Part shown: positions 43,119 to 58,166 of the stretch, in pieces
Numbering within the stretch: the stretch's first letter is position 1
How the letters are laid out: each line of letters opens with the position of its first letter
NCBI GenBank assembly: GCA_018268595.1
Contig: JAFDWH010000009.1
Coordinates: forward strand, 248,001-312,000
Direction of reading: 5' to 3'
Length of the DNA: 64,000 nucleotides
Origin: Actinomycetota bacterium
GTDB lineage: Bacteria; Actinomycetota; Thermoleophilia; Solirubrobacterales; Solirubrobacteraceae
Notes under the pieces: generated by a model
Told to the model about the DNA's origin: nothing
Seen by the model: only the letters and a program-made list of their open reading frames with translations
The model's database searches: none
Translations under genes and position numbers: made by a program

Positions 43119-46304
<3,186 letters not shown>

Positions 46305-46308
46305 CCCC

Positions 46309-47094
46309 CTACTCAGGATCGAGCGTCAACTCGATCCGCTTGTTGATTCTGCCCTTGCTCTTGTACGAGGGGAGCGCGATCCGCCCCACCTCGCTCGTGT
46401 CGGCGACATGCGTGCCGCCGTCGGCCTGCAGGTCGAGCCCGTCGATCCCGACGACCCGCACGACGCGGATCGACGGCGGCAGCAGGCTGACCTTGCTGCG
46501 GATCAGGTCGGGGTCGCGGTCCGCGTCCTCGCGCGCGAGGAAGTCGACGCGCGTCGGGCGCGCGGCCTCGACCTCGCGGTTCACCGCCTCCTCGACCTCG
46601 CGCACGAACTCGCCACTGAGGTGCTCGAACTCGAAGTCCATCCGCCCTCGCAGCGGCTCCATGTTCGCGCCCGTGACCTTCGCGCCGTGGTCGCGCCAGA
46701 TCACCGCGCAGAGGATGTGCAGCGCGGTGTGCGTGCGCATCAGCGCGTAGCGGCGCTCCCAGTCGACCTCGCACTCGACCTCGGTCCCGACCGGCGGCGC
46801 CTCGGAGTCCAGCTCATACCACGGCCTCGGGGGGCCCGCCTCCGCCGACCACGTGGCCGGCTTCGGCACCCCAAGCTCCCCGCCGGCGGAGCGCGCACCG
46901 GTCAACGACCAGGTGCGCGCTCCGTCGGTCACGGTCCCGCGGTCGTGCGGCTGGCCGCCGCCCCCCGGATAGAAGGCGCTGCGGTCGAGCTGCACGGCCT
47001 CCCCCATTGCGGCCGTGACCGTGGCGGGGAAGCGGCGGCAGTACGCGTCGACCTGGTAGAGCGGCGCAGCCTGAGCAGACGCGATCTCAGACAA
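46309..47094 (-). CDS. AlaX-type alanyl-tRNA editing protein
   Basis: Removes serine or glycine wrongly attached to tRNA-Ala. 261 residues; TTG 47094 overlaps the preceding gene by 8 nt, and GGTGAG lies upstream. It has the AlaRS editing-core motifs AFYPGGGGQPHDRG, zinc-binding HTALH, and DGGTHVADT, where the usual cysteine ligand is Asp, as I recall for one AlaX subgroup. Being between a lower-pathway hydratase and ileS suggests translation-quality genes were joined to the catabolic transcript. Confidence 0.85.
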   Translation of the reverse strand: MSEIASAQAAPLYQVDAYCRRFPATVTAAMGEAVQLDRSAFYPGGGGQPHDRGTVTDGARTWSLTGARSAGGELGVPKPATWSAEAGPPRPWYELDSEAPPVGTEVECEVDWERRYALMRTHTALHILCAVIWRDHGAKVTGANMEPLRGRMDFEFEHLSGEFVREVEEAVNREVEAARPTRVDFLAREDADRDPDLIRSKVSLLPPSIRVVRVVGIDGLDLQADGGTHVADTSEVGRIALPSYKSKGRINKRIELTLDPE

Positions 47095-47947
47095 GGCGCA
47101 CGCTCACCTCCCCCAGGCGGTCGAACGTCGCGTATGCCGCCTGTCCGGCGGCGATCGGCACGGCCCGCGCCACCGAGCCCGGCAGCACGATGTCGCCCGG
47201 CTCGAGCCGCTCGCCGCTCTGCGCCAGGGTGCCGGCGAGCCAGGCCACGGCCTCGGCCGGATGGCCGAGCACCGCGTCGCCACGGCCCCTGACGATCTCG
47301 GGCCCGATCGTGAGGCACACGTCGAGCTCCTCCACGCGCACATCCTCGGCGTCGTGCCAGTCGCCGATCACCGCCATCCCGGAGGAGGCGTTGTCGGCGA
47401 CCGTGTCGACGATCCCGATCCTCCACTGCGCGATGCGCGAGTCGATCAGCTCGAGCGCCGGCGCGAACGCCTGCGTCGCCTCGAGCACCTCTTCGCGCGT
47501 GACGCCCGGTCCCTGCAGCCCGCTCTTGAGCAGGAACGCTATCTCCGCCTCGACGCGCGGCTGCACGAAGCGCTCGGCTCTGAGCTGCGCGCCCGAGTTG
47601 ACGACCATCGACTCGAGCAGGTAGCCGCCGTCGGGCTGGTCGACGCCCATCATCTCCTGCATCGCGGCGCTCGTGAGGCCGACCTTCCAGCCGCGCAGCT
47701 CCTCGCCCTCGGCGGTGCGCAGCCGGCGGCCGATCGCCTGTACGCGGTAGGCGTCCCACAGCTCCAGCTCCGGGAACGTGGACGACAGCGGCTCGATCGG
47801 CTCGCGCCGCTGCTCGGCATGCCACAGCAGGCGTGCGAGCGCCTCGTGGTGCGGCGTCATCGCGCTCGCCTCGAGCAGCGCCGTCGGGAGCGGCGCGCCG
47901 CTCGGTATCGGTTCCTCCATGGTGCGCCCCACTGTGCGCATGCCCAT
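47087..47947 (-). CDS. 2-keto-4-pentenoate hydratase
   Basis: Adds water to 2-hydroxypenta-2,4-dienoate to give 4-hydroxy-2-oxovalerate in meta-cleavage pathways. 286 residues; ATG 47947 overlaps the aldolase stop by one base (TGATG). Motifs: GWKVGLTSAAMQ, PRVEAEIAFLL (metal ligands), and GHPAEAVAWLAGTL. The N-terminal ~25 residues are variable; ATG 47920 is a possible later start. Product feeds the aldolase encoded immediately upstream. Confidence 0.9.
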   Translation of the reverse strand: MGMRTVGRTMEEPIPSGAPLPTALLEASAMTPHHEALARLLWHAEQRREPIEPLSSTFPELELWDAYRVQAIGRRLRTAEGEELRGWKVGLTSAAMQEMMGVDQPDGGYLLESMVVNSGAQLRAERFVQPRVEAEIAFLLKSGLQGPGVTREEVLEATQAFAPALELIDSRIAQWRIGIVDTVADNASSGMAVIGDWHDAEDVRVEELDVCLTIGPEIVRGRGDAVLGHPAEAVAWLAGTLAQSGERLEPGDIVLPGSVARAVPIAAGQAAYATFDRLGEVSVRLV

Positions 47948-48993
47948 CACGCCACCCCCTCGCGTATCTCCACCTGGATGTCGACCTGGACCTCGAGGTG
48001 CTCCCGCAGCTCGGCGGCGACCTCGAGTATCACGTCCTCCTGACCCGCGATCACCTCGCGCTTGCCGAGCGCGAAGAAGACGTCGCGCGGGTCCACCCCG
48101 AACTCCTGCGCGATCCGGCGGACCGGTCTCGAGTAGCCGGAGAAGACGCCGGCCAGCCCGCTCACGATCGTCACCGAGTCGGTCGTCGGGATCGTCTGCA
48201 CCAGCTCGCGCTCGGCCAGGTCGGCCGCTTCGAGCAGCCTGTAGAGGTCGATCCCGGTCTCGTGCCCGAGCCGTTGCAGGACCGCGACGAGCACCTCGAG
48301 CTGCGTGTTGCCGGCGCCCGCGCCGAAGCCGCGCGCGGTCCCGTCGAGGATCGTCGCGCCCTCCTCGACGGCGGCGATCGAGTTCGCGACGCCGAGCGAG
48401 ACGTTCTCGTGCCCGTGGTAGCCGACGGCCATCCCGGTGCCCTCCACGAGCGCGGACACGCGGCGGCGCACGTCGTCGATCAGCAGCGCCCCGGCCGAGT
48501 CCATCACGATCGCGCCGCTGGCCCCGTACGCCTCCATCTTGCGCGCCTGCTCGACGAGGTCCCCGACCGTCGTCATGTGGCACATCATCAGCACGCCGTG
48601 GACCGGCTTGCTGTGCCCGCGCAGGTAGGTGATGTGGCGCTCGGTCAGGTCCGCCTCGGTGCAGTGCGTGCCGACGCGGAAGAGGTCGGCGCCCTCCTCG
48701 AGCGCGCCGTCGAGGTCCGGCAGCTTCGCGAAGCCGGGGATGCCGAACGCCTGCAGCTTCACGTCGGTGAGCTGCTCGCGCGCGATCCGCAGCATCTCGC
48801 GGTCGCTCAGCAGCGCCTGCCCGACCTGGAGCGACGAGGCGCCGAGCCCGTTGCCGTGGCCGACCTCGACGACCGGGATGCGGGCCGCGTTCGCGGCCGC
48901 CGCGTAGCTGCGGATCTGCTGCGCGCTGAGCTGGTGCTTGACGGCGTGGTTGCCGTCGCGCAGCGTCGGATCGCTGATCAGGATCTCTGCCAT
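47947..48993 (-). CDS. 4-hydroxy-2-oxovalerate aldolase
   Basis: Splits 4-hydroxy-2-oxovalerate into pyruvate and acetaldehyde. 348 residues from ATG 48993. HMGL-like barrel with SDPTLRDGNHAVKHQ (catalytic Arg-Asp and metal Asp) and metal histidines in GYHGHENVSLGVANS; the C-terminal communication domain is present. It forms a channelling complex with the acetaldehyde dehydrogenase encoded 32 nt upstream. Confidence 0.94.
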   Translation of the reverse strand: MAEILISDPTLRDGNHAVKHQLSAQQIRSYAAAANAARIPVVEVGHGNGLGASSLQVGQALLSDREMLRIAREQLTDVKLQAFGIPGFAKLPDLDGALEEGADLFRVGTHCTEADLTERHITYLRGHSKPVHGVLMMCHMTTVGDLVEQARKMEAYGASGAIVMDSAGALLIDDVRRRVSALVEGTGMAVGYHGHENVSLGVANSIAAVEEGATILDGTARGFGAGAGNTQLEVLVAVLQRLGHETGIDLYRLLEAADLAERELVQTIPTTDSVTIVSGLAGVFSGYSRPVRRIAQEFGVDPRDVFFALGKREVIAGQEDVILEVAAELREHLEVQVDIQVEIREGVA

Positions 48994-49025
48994 TTCCCCC
49001 TCGGCTCCCCTCGACCGTCGCCGTC

Positions 49026-49922
49026 TCAGCCGGTGGCCGCCACGGCCTCGTCCTCGCTGTCGTCCTGCCAGTTCGCGCGCGCCCGCTCCTCCGCCGCCGC
49101 GACCGCGGCGCAGGTGATGATGTCGAGGTTGCCTGCGTACGCCGGCAGGTAGTCGCCGGCGCCGCGGATCTGCACGGTCATCGCGATGCGGCCGCCCTCG
49201 TACAGCGGCGGCACGACGAGGTGGTAGCCCGGCACGTAGCGCTGCACGCGCGCGACCATCTGCTCGACCGCCGCCGTCAGCGTCTCGAGGTCCGCCTCCT
49301 CCGTCTTCGCGAAGACGGTGTTCTGCATCGTGATCGGCGGGTTCGACGGGTTGACGATCAGGATCGTCTTCGCGCGCGCGACGCCGGTGAACTTCCTGAC
49401 GGCCGCCTCGGTCGTCGCGAGGTACTCGTCTATGTTGATGCGCGTCGCCGGGCCGACCGAGCGCGACGCGCTCGTGGAGACGATCTCGACGTACTCGACG
49501 TGCGCGTGCGTCGCCGCGACGCACGCCGCGAGCGGGACGGCCGCCTGTCCGCCGCACGTGACCATGCAGAGGTTCGGCTCCTGCGCCGCCTCCGCGAGGT
49601 TGAGCGCCGGGATGCACAGCTCGCCGAGCTTCGCGGGCGTCAGGTCGACCACCGGCACGCCGCGCGGCTCGAGCAGCTCCCAGTGGCGGCGCGCGTCGAG
49701 CGCGGAGGTCGCGTCGAAGACGAGGTCCAGCTCGTCCGCCAGCTCCACGACCGCGTCGATCGAGCGGTCGCTGACCGGCACGCCGAGATCGCGCGCGGTG
49801 CGCATGCCGGCGGAGGCGAGGTTGCGGCCCGAGAACAGCGCGCACTCGAGCCACGGCGAGCGTTGGACCTTCAGCAGCAGGTCGGTGCCGATGTTGCCGG
49901 TGCCGATGATCGCGACCCGCAT
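49026..49922 (-). CDS. Acetaldehyde dehydrogenase (acylating)
   Basis: Converts acetaldehyde to acetyl-CoA with NAD. 298 residues from ATG 49922. NAD motif IIGTGNIGTDLLLK at the start, catalytic Cys in MVTCGGQAAVP (about 122), and VNPSNPPITMQNTV. Length is normal for the bacterial meta-pathway enzyme. Cupin gene ends 5 nt upstream. Confidence 0.94.
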   Translation of the reverse strand: MRVAIIGTGNIGTDLLLKVQRSPWLECALFSGRNLASAGMRTARDLGVPVSDRSIDAVVELADELDLVFDATSALDARRHWELLEPRGVPVVDLTPAKLGELCIPALNLAEAAQEPNLCMVTCGGQAAVPLAACVAATHAHVEYVEIVSTSASRSVGPATRINIDEYLATTEAAVRKFTGVARAKTILIVNPSNPPITMQNTVFAKTEEADLETLTAAVEQMVARVQRYVPGYHLVVPPLYEGGRIAMTVQIRGAGDYLPAYAGNLDIITCAAVAAAEERARANWQDDSEDEAVAATG

Positions 49923-49927
49923 CGCCG

Positions 49928-50317
49928 CTACGCCCTCGGGTCGAGCAGGATGCCGAGGAACGGGCACGTGTCGGTCGCGACCTCGTGGACGACCAGCCGG
50001 TGGTGCTTGCCGGCGGGGATCAGCACCGACGCGGGCGAGGTCAGCTCGATGCTGTCGTCGTCCAGCTCGACGGTGAAGCGGCAGCCGGGCGTCACGCACA
50101 GGTAGATCTCGTCGTGGTCGTCGTGCACGTGCAGGTCGGCGTGCGGCGCGCCGATCAGTTGCGCGGCGTCGACGCCGGCGATCGAGAAGGGCGCGCCGGG
50201 CAGCGTGTCCGGCGTGACGAACATCGGCGTGGGCGCGTGGTGGCCGGCGAACTCCTGCGTCACCGGCAGGCCCTCCGTCACGACGACGCCCGAGCGCTCT
50301 GCGACCGAGACCGACAT
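49928..50317 (-). CDS. Small single-domain cupin protein, 129 aa
   Basis: ATG 50317, one base after the methyltransferase stop. Cupin motif 1 HVHDDHDEIYLCVTPG and motif 2 PAGKHHRLVVHE carry histidines and a Glu suitable for a metal centre. It could be a small dioxygenase, isomerase or binding protein; no further assignment is safe. In this operon it may perform the ring or side-chain step missing from the pathway. Confidence 0.75.
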   Translation of the reverse strand: MSVSVAERSGVVVTEGLPVTQEFAGHHAPTPMFVTPDTLPGAPFSIAGVDAAQLIGAPHADLHVHDDHDEIYLCVTPGCRFTVELDDDSIELTSPASVLIPAGKHHRLVVHEVATDTCPFLGILLDPRA

Positions 50318-50318
50318 G

Positions 50319-51317
50319 TCAGGCTCCCTCCTCGTTGTCGTTCCGGTACAGCAAGAGAATCGCCCCCGGCAGGCCGAGCTCGCGCACCTCGTGGCGCGAC
50401 CAACCGGCGATCGTGAAGGCCTCGTGCCAGCCGTCCGCGTCGAGCAGCTCCTGACGCATGATCGCGTGCAGCAGCGTGAACTCGGGGCGCCAGCGCTCGT
50501 CGTGCGCGCCGCTCGCCGGCTGCACCTCGGCGACGAGCATGTGCGCGCCGGCCGGCATGATCCCGCCGAGCTTCGTCAGGTAGGCGATCAGCGCCTGCTT
50601 GCCGTGCTCGAAGATCTCGTGCAGCAGGAAGTGCGCGACGGCGAGGTCGGCGTCCCTCAGCTCCGGGATCGCGTCGAGGTCGCCCGCGTCGCCGCAGCGC
50701 ACGACGACGCTGCCGGTGAGGTCGGCCTCCGCGATTCTGCGCTCGGCGTCCTCGCACGCCTCCGGGCTGAGGTCGACGCCGACTCCGGTGACGCCGAAGC
50801 GCTGGGCGGCGCCGATCAGGAAGCGCGCGTTGCCGCAGCCGAGGTCGACGACGTGGCCGAAGTCGATCCCCTGCAGGACCTCGACGGCGTAGGGCGCGAC
50901 GTCGTCGCGGCCGATCAGCGCGGAGCCTTCGGCGACCCAGCGGCCGGCGCGCTCGACGTCCGTGCCGTAGCTGCGCGCGCCGGTGACGAAGTCGCCGAGA
51001 CCCGCGAGCACGTGGCCGTAGCCGCCTTGCAGCCACACGAGGTAGCCCTTGTCCTTGACGATCGCGCGGCCGCGCTCGGTCAGCTCGTAGCCGCCGTCGC
51101 GCTCCTCCGCCAGCTCCCGCTGGGCGAGGTAGCGCAGCGTCGCCGGCATCAGCCGGTCGGGGTCGGCGACCCCGGCGGGCGCGCCGGAGACCGGACCCGC
51201 CTCGAGTGCGGCGAGCAGGCCGGACTCGTCGAGCGACGCGAGCACGCTCGCGAGCGCAAAGCCCTCGAACAGTTCGAACACAGGCCGCTGCTCGACGGCG
51301 GCGTCCACGGCGGTCAT
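50319..51317 (-). CDS. SAM-dependent methyltransferase with N-terminal winged helix
   Basis: 332 residues from ATG 51317. N-terminal helical/winged dimerisation region (FELFEGFALASVLASLDESGLLAAL), then a Rossmann methyltransferase with motif I VVDLGCGNARFL (about 154-165), GVGVDLSPEAC, and motif II VAHFLLHEI. Resembles small-molecule O- or N-methyltransferases. First gene of the operon; the promoter at 51373-51401 serves it. Substrate unknown, possibly an intermediate of the linked pathway. Confidence 0.8.
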   Translation of the reverse strand: MTAVDAAVEQRPVFELFEGFALASVLASLDESGLLAALEAGPVSGAPAGVADPDRLMPATLRYLAQRELAEERDGGYELTERGRAIVKDKGYLVWLQGGYGHVLAGLGDFVTGARSYGTDVERAGRWVAEGSALIGRDDVAPYAVEVLQGIDFGHVVDLGCGNARFLIGAAQRFGVTGVGVDLSPEACEDAERRIAEADLTGSVVVRCGDAGDLDAIPELRDADLAVAHFLLHEIFEHGKQALIAYLTKLGGIMPAGAHMLVAEVQPASGAHDERWRPEFTLLHAIMRQELLDADGWHEAFTIAGWSRHEVRELGLPGAILLLYRNDNEEGA

Positions 51318-51372: not shown

Positions 51373-51401
51373 GTTATATGCCTGGCCTCCGGCCGAGTCA
51401 A
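51373..51401 (-). promoter_or_regulatory. Sigma-70-type promoter of the catabolic operon
   Basis: On the minus strand TTGACT and TATAAC are separated by exactly 17 bp, close to the housekeeping consensus. The -10 ends 56 bp before the methyltransferase ATG. It lies in the 128-bp gap after the monooxygenase gene and is the best promoter match I see in the window. Confidence 0.7.
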
Positions 51402-51445: not shown

Positions 51446-52954
51446 TCAATGCAGGGCGAGCGCGGGCGCGACAGGCGCGGCGGGGGCGGGCGCGAGCAGC
51501 TCGTACTCGGCGGCGTCGAAGCGGCGCGTCGCGCGGCGGAACGTCCACGAGCTGCCGGGCCACAGCGTCGTGTTGCGGCCGTGCGCGTCGAGGTACCAGC
51601 TCGCGCAGCCGCCCTGGGTCCAGACGGTGCGGCGCATGCGCCGCTGGACCTCGGCGTTGAACGCCGCCTGCGCGTCGGGGCGCGGGTCGCAGGCACTGGA
51701 GCCGTGCGCGTCCATCGTGCGCAGCGCGTCCATCACGTAGGCGACCTGCGACTCGATCATGAAGACGATCGAGTTGTGCCCGAGGCCGGTGTTCGGGCCG
51801 ACGAGCATGAACAGGTTCGGGAAGCCGGAGACGGTCGTGCCGCGCAGCGCCTGCATGCCGTCGGCGCGCCAAGTGTCGCCGAGCAGCCGCCCGTCGCGTC
51901 CGCGCAGCCACTCGACGTACGGCATGTCGGTGACGCGGAAGCCGGTCCCCCACACGATCGCGTCGGCGGGGTGCTCGACGCCGTCGGCGGTCACGACCCC
52001 GCGCGGCGCGATCCGCTCGATCGCGTCGGTCACGAGCGCGACGTTCGGCTGCTGCAACGCCGGGAAGTACTCGTCGCTCATCAGGATCCGCTTGCAGCCG
52101 ATCTCGTAGTGCGGCGTGAGCTGCTCGCGCAGCCGCGGGTCGGCGACCTGCTCGCGCAGGTGCCGCAGCGCGATCGCCTGCGGGATGCGGCTGAGGCGGT
52201 GGAGCTTGAACGGCAGCACGTAGCACTCGCGCCCCCAGTAGACGGCGCCGCGCACGAGCTTCTGCAGCGCCGGGAGGGCCTTGAAGAGGGCGCGCTCGCG
52301 CGGGCGGGTCGGGCGGCCGGGGTGCGGCATGATCCACGGCGGGGTGCGCTGGAAGAGGTCGAGATGCGCGACCTGCGGCTGGATGCGCGGGACGACCTGG
52401 ACGGCCGACGCGCCGGTGCCGATGACGGCGACGCGCTTGCCGGTCAGGTCGGCGGCGCGGTCCCAGCGGGCGGTGTGGAAGGCGGGGCCCTCGAAGCTGT
52501 CGGCGCCGGGGACGTCGGGGATCGCCGGCTCGCTGAGGCCGCCCATGCCGGCGACCAGCACGCGCGCCGTCAGCGCGCCGCGATCGGTCTCGACGCGCCA
52601 GCGGCGCGCCTGCTCGTCCCATGCCGCGGCGGTGACCGCGGTGCCGGTGCGGACGTACGGCCGCACGCCGAAGTCGTCGGCGACCTTGCGCAGGTACGCG
52701 CCGATCTCGGGCTGCGGCGCGAACGTCTGCGACCACGCCGGGTTCGGCGCGAACGAGAACGAGTAGAGGTTCGACGGCACGTCGCACTGGCAGCCGGGGT
52801 AGGTGTTCTGCCACCAGGTCCCGCCGACCTCCGTGTCGCGCTCGAGCACGACGAAGTCGTCGCGGCCGGCTCTCAGGAGCGCGATCGCCATGCCGAGGCC
52901 GGCGAAGCCGCTGCCGACGATCGCGACGTCGACGTGGTCGGGGAGGTCCGTCAT
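51446..52954 (-). CDS. Baeyer-Villiger-type flavin monooxygenase
   Basis: 502 residues from ATG 52954. FAD motif IVGSGFAGLGMAIAL, the Baeyer-Villiger fingerprint FEGPAFHTARWD (about 153-164), NADP motif IGTGASAVQ, and the conserved GTGF and GPNTGLGHNS segments. These enzymes insert oxygen next to a ketone to form an ester or lactone. It is divergent from a TetR gene, with an inverted repeat between. Substrate unknown; a link to the meta-cleavage operon is possible by position only. Confidence 0.9.
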   Translation of the reverse strand: MTDLPDHVDVAIVGSGFAGLGMAIALLRAGRDDFVVLERDTEVGGTWWQNTYPGCQCDVPSNLYSFSFAPNPAWSQTFAPQPEIGAYLRKVADDFGVRPYVRTGTAVTAAAWDEQARRWRVETDRGALTARVLVAGMGGLSEPAIPDVPGADSFEGPAFHTARWDRAADLTGKRVAVIGTGASAVQVVPRIQPQVAHLDLFQRTPPWIMPHPGRPTRPRERALFKALPALQKLVRGAVYWGRECYVLPFKLHRLSRIPQAIALRHLREQVADPRLREQLTPHYEIGCKRILMSDEYFPALQQPNVALVTDAIERIAPRGVVTADGVEHPADAIVWGTGFRVTDMPYVEWLRGRDGRLLGDTWRADGMQALRGTTVSGFPNLFMLVGPNTGLGHNSIVFMIESQVAYVMDALRTMDAHGSSACDPRPDAQAAFNAEVQRRMRRTVWTQGGCASWYLDAHGRNTTLWPGSSWTFRRATRRFDAAEYELLAPAPAAPVAPALALH

Positions 52955-52974
52955 CGCGCGCTCGCTCTCATTCG

Positions 52975-53013
52975 AAGAAACACTTCGTTTTCTACTGTAC
53001 CATGTTGTTTCTT
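52975..53013. promoter_or_regulatory. Divergent operator/promoter: 8-bp inverted repeat
   Basis: AAGAAACA (52975-52982) and TGTTTCTT (53006-53013) are exact reverse complements 23 bp apart in an AT-rich 60-bp gap. TACTGT inside the gap could be a -10. A TetR-like site controlling both the regulator and monooxygenase genes is expected here. Confidence 0.5.
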
Positions 53014-57163: not shown

Positions 57164-57287
57164 GGCCGCGGCGGGGCGCGCAACGGTTCCATGAGAGAGA
57201 TGTGCCCGACGCGGCTTAGAGGAGGGTTAATCCACGAGGAGGGTTCGTGGAGAATTGGGCCCGCCGGTACAGTCCACGGCACCGTCG

Positions 57288-58166
57288 ATGGCCGCCCTGT
57301 CCCCCACGCTCTCGCTCGGCCCGATCCGGCTGACCGTCGCCGACCCGGTCGGCGTCGCCGCCTTCTACGAGCGCGCGATCGGCCTGCGGCAAGTCGGCGA
57401 GTCCGGCGACGGGGTCGTGCGGCTCGGCGCCGGCACTGACGCCAGCGCGCCGTCGCTCGTCGAGCTGGTCCCCGACGCGAGCGCGCCGCCGCGCACGCGC
57501 CACTCGTGCGGGCTCTTCCACCTCGCGCTGCTCGTGCCCGACCGGCGCGCGCTCGCGCACGCGCTGCGCCGCGTCGCACGGGCCGGCTGGCGGCTCGACG
57601 GCGCCTCCGACCACCTCGTCAGCGAGGCGCTCTACCTGTCCGACCCGGAGGGCAACGGGATCGAGCTGTACCGCGACCGCCCGCGCGCCGAGTGGCGCCG
57701 AAGCGAGACGGGCGAGCTGGCGATGGCGACGCTGCCGCTCGACCTCGACGACCTCGCCCGCGAGCTGGACGGCGAGGAGGGCGACGGCGAGGCCGACCGC
57801 GGCATGCCGCCCGGCACGACGCTCGGGCACGTGCACCTGCAGGTCGCCGACCTCGGCGCGGCCGAGGCGTTCTACGCGGGCGCGCTCGACTTCGAGGTGA
57901 CGGTGCGCGGGTATCCCGGCGCGCTGTTCGTGGCCGCCGGCGGCTACCACCACCACCTCGGCCTCAACACGTGGGCGAGCGCCGGCGGGCCACCCGCGGA
58001 CCCGGCCGCGCGCGGCCTGCGCGACTTCGCGATCCGCTTCGGCGACGCCGCCGAGCGCGACCGCGTCACCAACCAGGTGGCGGAAGCCGGGTACCTGCTG
58101 CGGGAGGAGCGCGACGCCGCCGTCGCGATCGACCCGTTCGGCATCGCGGTGCGCCTGCTGGCTTAA
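57288..58166 (+). CDS. VOC-family (catechol 2,3-dioxygenase-like) protein, 292 aa
   Basis: ATG 57288. Two vicinal-oxygen-chelate halves: IRLTVADPVGVAAFYERAIGL (about 11-125) and LGHVHLQVADLGAAEAFYAGAL (about 175-292), each with strand-helix-strand units. YLSDPEGNGIELY and the GHVH motif offer metal ligands. Resembles CatE/YfiE-type extradiol dioxygenases. TACAGT at 57268-57273 could be a -10. If active it might supply the ring cleavage missing from the meta-pathway operon, 6 kb away. Confidence 0.8.
   Translation: MAALSPTLSLGPIRLTVADPVGVAAFYERAIGLRQVGESGDGVVRLGAGTDASAPSLVELVPDASAPPRTRHSCGLFHLALLVPDRRALAHALRRVARAGWRLDGASDHLVSEALYLSDPEGNGIELYRDRPRAEWRRSETGELAMATLPLDLDDLARELDGEEGDGEADRGMPPGTTLGHVHLQVADLGAAEAFYAGALDFEVTVRGYPGALFVAAGGYHHHLGLNTWASAGGPPADPAARGLRDFAIRFGDAAERDRVTNQVAEAGYLLREERDAAVAIDPFGIAVRLLA

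What the first reader, a model, noticed from the sequence alone, without database searches (positions are those of the whole stretch)
46309..51317. Lower meta-cleavage operon running into tRNA-editing and IleS2-type genes
Hydratase, aldolase and acylating dehydrogenase are complete, but no ring-cleaving dioxygenase or semialdehyde enzyme is present; a methyltransferase and small cupin are in their place. The same transcript apparently continues into an AlaX protein and ileS with gaps of a few bases. The pathway may act on an unusual methylated or non-aromatic substrate.
Basis: partly seen in the sequence, partly recalled or inferred. Interest (0 to 1): 0.5.

Follow-up and report, generated by a model that had tools for sequence, protein, structure and literature searches.

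The report
Isoleucine-mimic biosynthesis operon with spare IleRS
An actinobacterium carries an operon that looks like a degradation pathway but more likely builds a methylated, isoleucine-like amino acid, together with its own extra copy of the enzyme that loads isoleucine for protein synthesis, perhaps for self-protection.

Summary
In detail: seven minus-strand genes (51317-43119) run methyltransferase, cupin, acylating acetaldehyde dehydrogenase, aldolase, hydratase, AlaX, ileS, with gaps of -8 to 32 bases. Six further loci keep the order; AlaX is in 5 of 7. Aromatic breakdown is probably the wrong reading. The methyltransferase's closest solved relatives are alpha-keto-acid C3-methyltransferases (SgvM, MrsA, MppJ), both SgvM metal histidines kept; the cupin's is the MarH epimerase. 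Such a pair beta-methylates and epimerises a 2-oxo acid in streptonigrin biosynthesis. With the aldolase and hydratase, the simplest product is 3-methyl-2-oxopent-4-enoate, then 2-amino-3-methylpent-4-enoate, whose (2S,3S) form E. coli IleRS accepts. The operon IleRS is a second copy: 4 of 4 Conexibacter genomes gave two matches, 52 of 57 other family genomes one. It forms its own clade, with changes beside the amino-acid-site motif. Best reading: a cryptic isoleucine-antimetabolite operon with an immune IleRS. Families and conservation are shown; direction, product and immunity are inferred.

The parts
51373..51401 (-). Promoter-like site: TTGACT (51401-51396), 17-base spacer, TATAAC (51378-51373)
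   Evidence: CATATAA invariant in 6 of 6 aligned upstream regions; the TTGACG invariant in that alignment lies 12 or more bases further upstream in the window, so the window's -35 is the less certain half; not listed by the consensus scan
50319..51317 (-). SAM methyltransferase, kin of alpha-keto-acid C3-methyltransferases (SgvM/MrsA/MppJ); proposed metal histidines H233 and H284
49928..50317 (-). 129-aa MarH/StnK3-like cupin, proposed C3 epimerase; HVHDDHDE and a later histidine
49026..49922 (-). Acetaldehyde dehydrogenase (acylating), proposed acetaldehyde supply from acetyl-CoA
   Evidence: TCGGQ stretch kept
47947..48993 (-). 4-hydroxy-2-oxovalerate aldolase with DmpG communication domain; TLRDGNHA and HGHEN stretches
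47087..47947 (-). 2-oxopent-4-enoate hydratase-family protein, proposed dehydration step
46309..47094 (-). AlaX-M-like tRNA-editing protein, TTG start inside the hydratase gene; present in 5 of 7 loci
43119..46304 (-). Second IleRS, type 2 with GSHH signature, own clade; proposed immunity or dedicated enzyme

Best explanation
This is a biosynthetic operon for a beta-methylated, isoleucine-shaped 2-oxo or amino acid, carrying its own resistant isoleucyl-tRNA synthetase. Proposed route: (1) the dehydrogenase reduces acetyl-CoA to acetaldehyde; (2) the aldolase joins it to pyruvate, giving 4-hydroxy-2-oxopentanoate; (3) the hydratase, run backwards, removes water to give 2-hydroxypenta-2,4-dienoate, the enol of 2-oxopent-4-enoate; (4) the methyltransferase adds a methyl group at C3; (5) the cupin epimerises C3 to the isoleucine-like S form; (6) a housekeeping transaminase gives (2S,3S)-2-amino-3-methylpent-4-enoate (4,5-dehydroisoleucine). 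The operon IleRS, and AlaX where present, protect the producer from its own isoleucine mimic. Shown by sequence: the enzyme families, the operon, its conservation and the second IleRS. Inferred: direction, order of steps 3-5, exact product, immunity. Rough likelihoods: alpha-keto-acid methyltransferase 0.8, cupin epimerase 0.75, synthetic direction 0.65, isoleucine-shaped product 0.5, IleRS as immunity 0.5, exactly dehydroisoleucine 0.35.
For: Methyltransferase: best solved relatives are SgvM (8ftv, E 1.7e-14), 2-ketoarginine methyltransferase (8r4z, 1.4e-11) and MppJ (4m6x, 5.5e-11); SgvM's metal ligands H244 and H296 (PMC10502145) align with H233 and H284, invariant in 6 of 6; the model ranks SgvM first, Z 18.3. 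A distant plasmid relative (29% identity) sits next to an aminotransferase gene. Cupin: 6j4b (E 5.1e-20), titled MarH epimerase, and 7eqk (1.3e-18), titled non-heme iron epimerase/lyase. StnQ1 plus StnK3, a 129-aa cupin, methylate and epimerise indolepyruvate (PMC4742848). Precedent for pyruvate plus an aldehyde building such an amino acid: ADH of cyclomarin (PMC8068612), whose cluster holds a 4-oxalocrotonate decarboxylase gene (PMC5270213). E. [quoted passage not shown] Two IleRS matches in 4 of 4 genus genomes, the same 4 of 61 with a near full-length methyltransferase. The 6 operon IleRS form a clade (100/100) apart from 35 others, with E524A, V525T and G533A beside the amino-acid-site motif. 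Extra synthetases in clusters: AcmD and SbzA (PMC12945691).
Against: The aldolase, dehydrogenase and hydratase families are best known in the degradative direction (general knowledge). None of the seven genes is an aminotransferase, exporter or peptide-assembly gene. The methyltransferase is far below the 2-ketoarginine methyltransferase cut-off (97.8 against 425 bits), and in the fold comparison O-methyltransferases follow SgvM closely (MmcR Z 17.8). The cupin model is middling (pLDDT 68), and MarH at Z 8.6 is tied with unrelated proteins such as AlkB (Z 9.2). GXHH is in 41 of 41 IleRS aligned, so it is not specific to the operon. Two pocket changes seen at first, V528T and F530Y, proved to be shared with another family's IleRS and were dropped; the ten-residue stretch for the P value was chosen after seeing the data. 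AlaX is missing from 2 of 7 loci. No product is known.
Confidence: 0.55

Rival explanations
1. Catabolic lower meta-cleavage operon: hydratase, aldolase and dehydrogenase degrade a 2-hydroxydienoate to pyruvate and acetyl-CoA; the methyltransferase and cupin prepare an unusual substrate.
For: Aldolase and dehydrogenase pass their equivalog cut-offs; catalytic stretches are kept.
Against: No ring-cleaving dioxygenase or semialdehyde enzyme among the seven genes; no TIGR03211 match over cut-off in the genome (other dioxygenase families not searched); two other aldolase/dehydrogenase pairs exist elsewhere; methyltransferase and cupin have biosynthetic kin; the link with a second ileS is unexplained.
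Confidence: 0.15
2. An alternative isoleucine route: the same chemistry plus an ene-reductase gives 3-methyl-2-oxopentanoate, so isoleucine supply and charging are co-expressed.
For: Methylating 2-oxopentanoate at C3 gives isoleucine's own 2-oxo acid (chemistry); ileS in the same operon.
Against: A threonine deaminase match over the family cut-off is present (390.2 against 378.75 bits); no reductase among the seven genes; it would not explain a second, divergent IleRS.
Confidence: 0.1
3. The IleRS is a biosynthetic enzyme like SbzA: it moves an aminoacyl group from tRNA-Ile onto a small molecule, or loads the new amino acid for a tRNA-dependent ligase.
For: SbzA precedent (PMC12945691); long branch and changed residues beside the amino-acid-site and editing motifs.
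Against: No acceptor-forming genes among the seven; the GSHH and KMSKS signatures are intact, as in the other IleRS aligned.
Confidence: 0.12
4. The small-molecule genes and ileS/AlaX are functionally unrelated neighbours sharing a promoter.
For: Housekeeping genes can sit in mixed operons (general knowledge); AlaX comes and goes (2 of 7 loci lack it).
Against: Without AlaX, ileS still overlaps the hydratase gene (L032) or starts 36 bases behind it (L033); the ileS concerned is the extra copy and goes with the methyltransferase in 4 of 4 genus genomes.
Confidence: 0.08

Closest known systems
StnQ1-StnK3-StnR / MarI-MarH-MarG beta-methyltryptophan cassette
   Same: SAM C-methyltransferase and a small cupin epimerase side by side; the window cupin is 129 aa, as StnK3 is
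   Different: No aminotransferase among the seven genes; the partner genes would make a C5 2-oxo acid instead of using indolepyruvate. StnQ1 and MarI themselves were not compared by sequence here
Cyclomarin ADH pathway (Salinispora)
   Same: Aldehyde plus pyruvate homologation, and a 4-oxalocrotonate decarboxylase gene in the cluster
   Different: Valine-derived isobutyraldehyde there; here a dedicated acylating dehydrogenase; peptide synthetase there, none here. That its cluster also holds a matching aldolase and methyltransferase is recalled, not tested
DmpEFG / BphHIJ lower meta-cleavage enzymes
   Same: Hydratase, aldolase and acylating dehydrogenase families and catalytic stretches
   Different: Hydratase below the DmpE cut-off; no ring-cleavage genes among the seven; joined to methyltransferase, cupin and ileS
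AcmD and SbzA synthetase copies in biosynthetic clusters
   Same: Extra aminoacyl-tRNA synthetase in a cluster beside the housekeeping copy
   Different: No nucleoside sulfamate or sulfonamide genes among the seven; resistance not tested

Membership tests
Lower meta-cleavage (catabolic) operon | Aldolase and acylating dehydrogenase of the DmpG/DmpF equivalog families | tested here: met
   TIGR03217 and TIGR03215 over cut-off
Lower meta-cleavage (catabolic) operon | 2-oxopent-4-enoate hydratase equivalog (TIGR03220) | tested here: not met
   238.5 bits against 408.8; solved relatives of the family are found (8ih6, 6e-48)
Lower meta-cleavage (catabolic) operon | Ring-cleaving extradiol dioxygenase with the operon | tested here: not met
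   None among the seven genes; genome has 2 weak TIGR03211 matches, none over cut-off; other dioxygenase families were not searched
Alpha-keto-acid C3-methyltransferase (SgvM/MrsA/MppJ kind) | Sequence kinship to characterised alpha-keto-acid C-methyltransferases | tested here: met
   8ftv 1.7e-14, 8r4z 1.4e-11, 4m6x 5.5e-11
Alpha-keto-acid C3-methyltransferase (SgvM/MrsA/MppJ kind) | Two metal-binding histidines (H244, H296 of SgvM) | tested here: met
   H233 and H284, invariant in 6 of 6
2-ketoarginine methyltransferase (TIGR04543) | Curated score cut-off | tested here: not met
   97.8 against 425 bits
MarH/StnK3 cupin epimerase | Sequence kinship to solved epimerases and cupin metal motif | tested here: met
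   6j4b 5.1e-20, 7eqk 1.3e-18, titles; H63, H65, E70 and H106 invariant in 6 of 6
MarH/StnK3 cupin epimerase | C3 epimerisation of a beta-methyl 2-oxo acid | not testable with these tools
   needs an enzyme assay
IleRS2 with GXHH signature | GXHH in place of HXGH in a type 2 IleRS | tested here: met
   GSHH in the window copy; best solved relatives are P. megaterium IleRS2 entries (8c8w, 8c8v, named in PMC10485003); definition from PMC10485003
Self-resistance aminoacyl-tRNA synthetase | Extra copy inside a biosynthetic cluster beside a housekeeping copy | tested here: inconclusive
   Extra copy: met, 2 matches in 4 of 4 genus genomes, operon linkage in 7 loci. That the operon is biosynthetic is inferred
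Self-resistance aminoacyl-tRNA synthetase | Resists the cluster's product better than the housekeeping copy | not testable with these tools
   product unknown
AlaX-M | Curated cut-off of NF040865 | tested here: not met
   236.9 against 300 bits
AlaX-M | Cysteine of the C-terminal CGGTH stretch (zinc ligand by recall) | tested here: not met
   aspartate in the window and in the 4 further operon copies aligned

The most novel reading that the evidence does not exclude
A previously undescribed antimetabolite system: the operon builds 4,5-dehydroisoleucine from acetyl-CoA, pyruvate and SAM, and the producer survives because a dedicated IleRS with changed residues at the amino-acid-site and editing motifs, helped by a repurposed AlaX, keeps the mimic off (or deliberately handles it on) tRNA-Ile.
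Probability: 0.27. Interest if true: 0.8.

Novelty: new variant of a known kind. Interest (0 to 1): 0.6.

Why it matters
If right, an operon that annotation by enzyme family would call aromatic degradation is a natural-product pathway in Conexibacter. It would be a compact route to an unsaturated isoleucine that translation accepts, from three central metabolites. It would also add an IleRS that may discriminate against an isoleucine mimic, useful for studying editing and for residue-specific labelling. The combination of keto-acid C-methyltransferase, MarH-like cupin, DmpFG-type aldolase and an extra synthetase is a searchable signature.

Tried and rejected
Cupin as a ring dioxygenase standing in for the missing one: its two strong sequence matches are entries titled as epimerases; 3-hydroxyanthranilate and quercetin dioxygenases appear only among tied fold matches. 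GXHH as an operon-specific resistance mark: rejected, 41 of 41 aligned IleRS have it. The wider pocket pattern with V528T and F530Y: reduced to E524A, V525T and G533A after adding five IleRS of a second family. T-box or other RNA control: no Rfam match at gathering score in the window or in six loci. tRNA gene next to ileS: none in the window. The flavin monooxygenase at 51446-52984 as a pathway member: found in L031, L032 (cut by the contig end) and L070, not in L029, L030 or L033, so left out. Relatives outside Conexibacter: cupin at E 1e-10 in 3 of 299 class genomes, all same genus, and at 1e-7 in 1 of 396 phylum genomes, the window's own; methyltransferase at 1e-14 in 2 of 396, the other only 26% identical; aldolase at 1e-85 in 2 of 376, the other 46%; cupin in no plasmid record at 1e-4, methyltransferase in 1 at 1e-15, 29% identical. 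These are samples, not all genomes; the collection search reaches close relatives only and gave 5 loci, one of them (L032) titled only Solirubrobacterales. In print: the searches listed no paper on this operon; listings were capped (15 of 198, 10 of 60), only open-licence papers are held, and of eight papers I read the passages returned by word searches, none whole.

Rows left out: the IleRS trees used the window copy, 5 further operon copies (L029, L030, L031, L033, L070; L032 is cut off), 4 Conexibacter housekeeping copies, 26 of the 58 other-genus rows (those for which the call gave a locus), and also 5 same-order rows. Operon-specific positions fell from 50 to 21 (gap columns, counted, were also left out there).
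Full report
What is there. The window is G000:C31:248001-312000. Its genus is Conexibacter by inference: G022 is listed as same genus, and its contig 1 has the length of the C. arvalis contig behind L031. On the minus strand seven genes follow one another: methyltransferase 51317-50319, cupin 50317-49928, acylating acetaldehyde dehydrogenase 49922-49026, 4-hydroxy-2-oxovalerate aldolase 48993-47947, hydratase 47947-47087, AlaX-like 47094-46309 (TTG start) and ileS 46304-43119. Gaps are 1, 5, 32, -1, -8 and 4 bases. Family assignments come from Pfam and NCBIfam, except for the cupin, which matched neither and was placed by solved structures.

One unit. A TATAAC with TTGACT 17 bases before it lies about 55 bases upstream of the methyltransferase start; CATATAA is invariant in 6 of 6 upstream regions aligned. 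The TTGACG that is invariant in that alignment lies further upstream in the window than this TTGACT, so the -35 half is less certain. No minus-strand terminator-like site was listed between 45500 and 53500. The order recurs in L029, L030, L031, L032, L033 and L070. L032 and L033 lack AlaX; in L032 the ileS start lies inside the end of the hydratase gene (the contig then ends within ileS), and in L033 the first ileS start codon lies 36 bases behind the hydratase stop. L031 and L071, and L033 and L072, are the same places fetched twice.

The methyltransferase. Its best solved relatives are SgvM (8ftv, E 1.7e-14), 2-ketoarginine methyltransferase (8r4z, 1.4e-11) and MppJ (4m6x, 5.5e-11). It is a relative, not a member, of the 2-ketoarginine methyltransferase equivalog (97.8 against 425 bits). 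SgvM binds its metal with H244 and H296, and the metal presumably triggers enolisation of the keto acid (PMC10502145, passages). The alignment puts H233 and H284 there, both invariant in 6 of 6. A six-sequence AlphaFold2 model (pLDDT 63) ranks SgvM entries first (Z 18.3), but O-methyltransferases of the same fold follow closely (Z 17.8 and below), so the sequence match carries the claim.

The cupin. Two strong sequence matches: 6j4b (E 5.1e-20) and 7eqk (1.3e-18), titled MarH, an epimerase for biosynthesis of maremycins, and a non-heme iron epimerase/lyase. The six-sequence model is middling (pLDDT 68) and its fold matches do not separate epimerases from other proteins of the fold. StnQ1 methylates the beta carbon of indolepyruvate and the 129-aa cupin StnK3 inverts it, in streptonigrin biosynthesis; MarI and MarH are homologous (PMC4742848, passages). 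The window cupin is also 129 aa, with H63, H65, E70 and H106 invariant in 6 of 6.

Why synthesis. A methyltransferase and epimerase of the 2-oxo-acid kind sit directly before enzymes that make or break a 2-oxo acid. In the breakdown direction the methyltransferase would have no obvious role. A printed precedent for building an amino acid from pyruvate and an aldehyde is ADH of cyclomarin, from valine-derived isobutyraldehyde (PMC8068612, passage; PMC8401383, passage); that cluster contains a 4-oxalocrotonate decarboxylase gene (PMC5270213, passage), an enzyme of the hydratase's superfamily (compare). Applied here with acetaldehyde, the same logic gives 3-methyl-2-oxopent-4-enoate and then 2-amino-3-methylpent-4-enoate. 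Propionaldehyde or a hydroxylated product (4-hydroxyisoleucine) cannot be excluded. The (3S) sense set by StnK3 corresponds to that of isoleucine (my reasoning from priority rules).

Why isoleucine. E. [quoted passage not shown] So the predicted product is a known IleRS substrate, and the operon ends in an IleRS gene.

The second IleRS. The genome holds another full-length IleRS at C5:207238-210369, 54% identical. At E 1e-120 all 4 genus genomes searched give two matches; of 57 other family genomes 52 give one, 3 give two and 2 none. The same 4 of 61 genomes carry a near full-length methyltransferase. In the tree of 41 rows the 6 operon copies form one clade (100/100) apart from 30 family and 5 same-order copies, while the four Conexibacter housekeeping copies nest inside the family. 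It is therefore not a recent duplicate within the genus. All 41 carry GXHH, a signature linked to mupirocin hyper-resistance in IleRS2 (PMC10485003, passages), so that mark does not set the operon copy apart. At 21 positions all 6 operon copies agree while at least 33 of 35 others share a different residue; three (E524A, V525T, G533A) fall in ten residues around the conserved D-x-W-[FY]-D-S motif, P 0.0009 by random placement, the stretch having been chosen after seeing the data. The motif's tryptophan corresponds to T. thermophilus W518 by the alignment; that W518 lines the isoleucine pocket is recalled. In the editing domain the third threonine of WTTT is Q in 5 and M in 1 of 6; one family copy (L040) also has M.

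AlaX. It matches AlaX-M below the cut-off (236.9 against 300), and the cysteine of CGGTH is aspartate in the five operon copies aligned. Since 2 of 7 loci lack it, it is an accessory.

Alternatives. A threonine deaminase match over cut-off lies elsewhere in the genome, so ordinary isoleucine synthesis is likely present. Two other aldolase/dehydrogenase pairs, 43-45% identical, lie at C11 and C31:232k; no relative of this hydratase was found in the stretches read. A single condensation-domain match lies at C26. None ties to the operon.

Verdict. Observation confirmed; interpretation partly supported. The best reading is a cryptic operon, found only in Conexibacter and one unnamed Solirubrobacterales contig in the samples searched, for an isoleucine-like compound with an extra IleRS. 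Families and conservation are shown; chemistry and immunity are predictions open to direct assay.

Noticed in passing
window 51446-52984, minus strand: Flavin monooxygenase/Baeyer-Villiger-like gene just upstream of the operon, shared with some but not all relatives' loci.
   Followed up: partly
window 57255-58166, plus strand: Two-domain VOC-like protein with weak matches to extradiol dioxygenase models (28.5 and 26.5 bits, cut-offs above 320); no solved relative at 1e-5.
   Followed up: partly
L002, L040-L068 and L086-L090, and the operon copies: 41 of 41 Solirubrobacterales IleRS aligned here carry GXHH instead of HXGH, so the swapped signature may be the rule in this order.
   Followed up: partly
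window 46309-47094: AlaX with aspartate in place of the CGGTH cysteine in the five operon copies aligned; metal binding or specificity may be altered.
   Followed up: no
L029, L030, L031, L032, L033, start of the dehydrogenase gene: In relatives the dehydrogenase frame has start codons some 22-35 codons upstream of the place that matches the window's start, so the true N-terminus is uncertain.
   Followed up: no
L092 7396-10869 (G000:C26): Peptide-synthetase protein (carrier, condensation and adenylation domains) next to a transglutaminase-like and a transporter gene.
   Followed up: partly
L081 8175-10231 (G000:C31, upstream of the window): A second aldolase/acylating dehydrogenase pair, with a weak catechol 2,3-dioxygenase-model match nearby at C31:235144-235650 on the other strand.
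   Followed up: partly
L083 6938-9952 (Alisedimentitalea plasmid): Distant methyltransferase relative (29%) directly followed by an aminotransferase and preceded by a putative 2OG-Fe(II) oxygenase gene: possibly another amino-acid methylation cassette.
   Followed up: no
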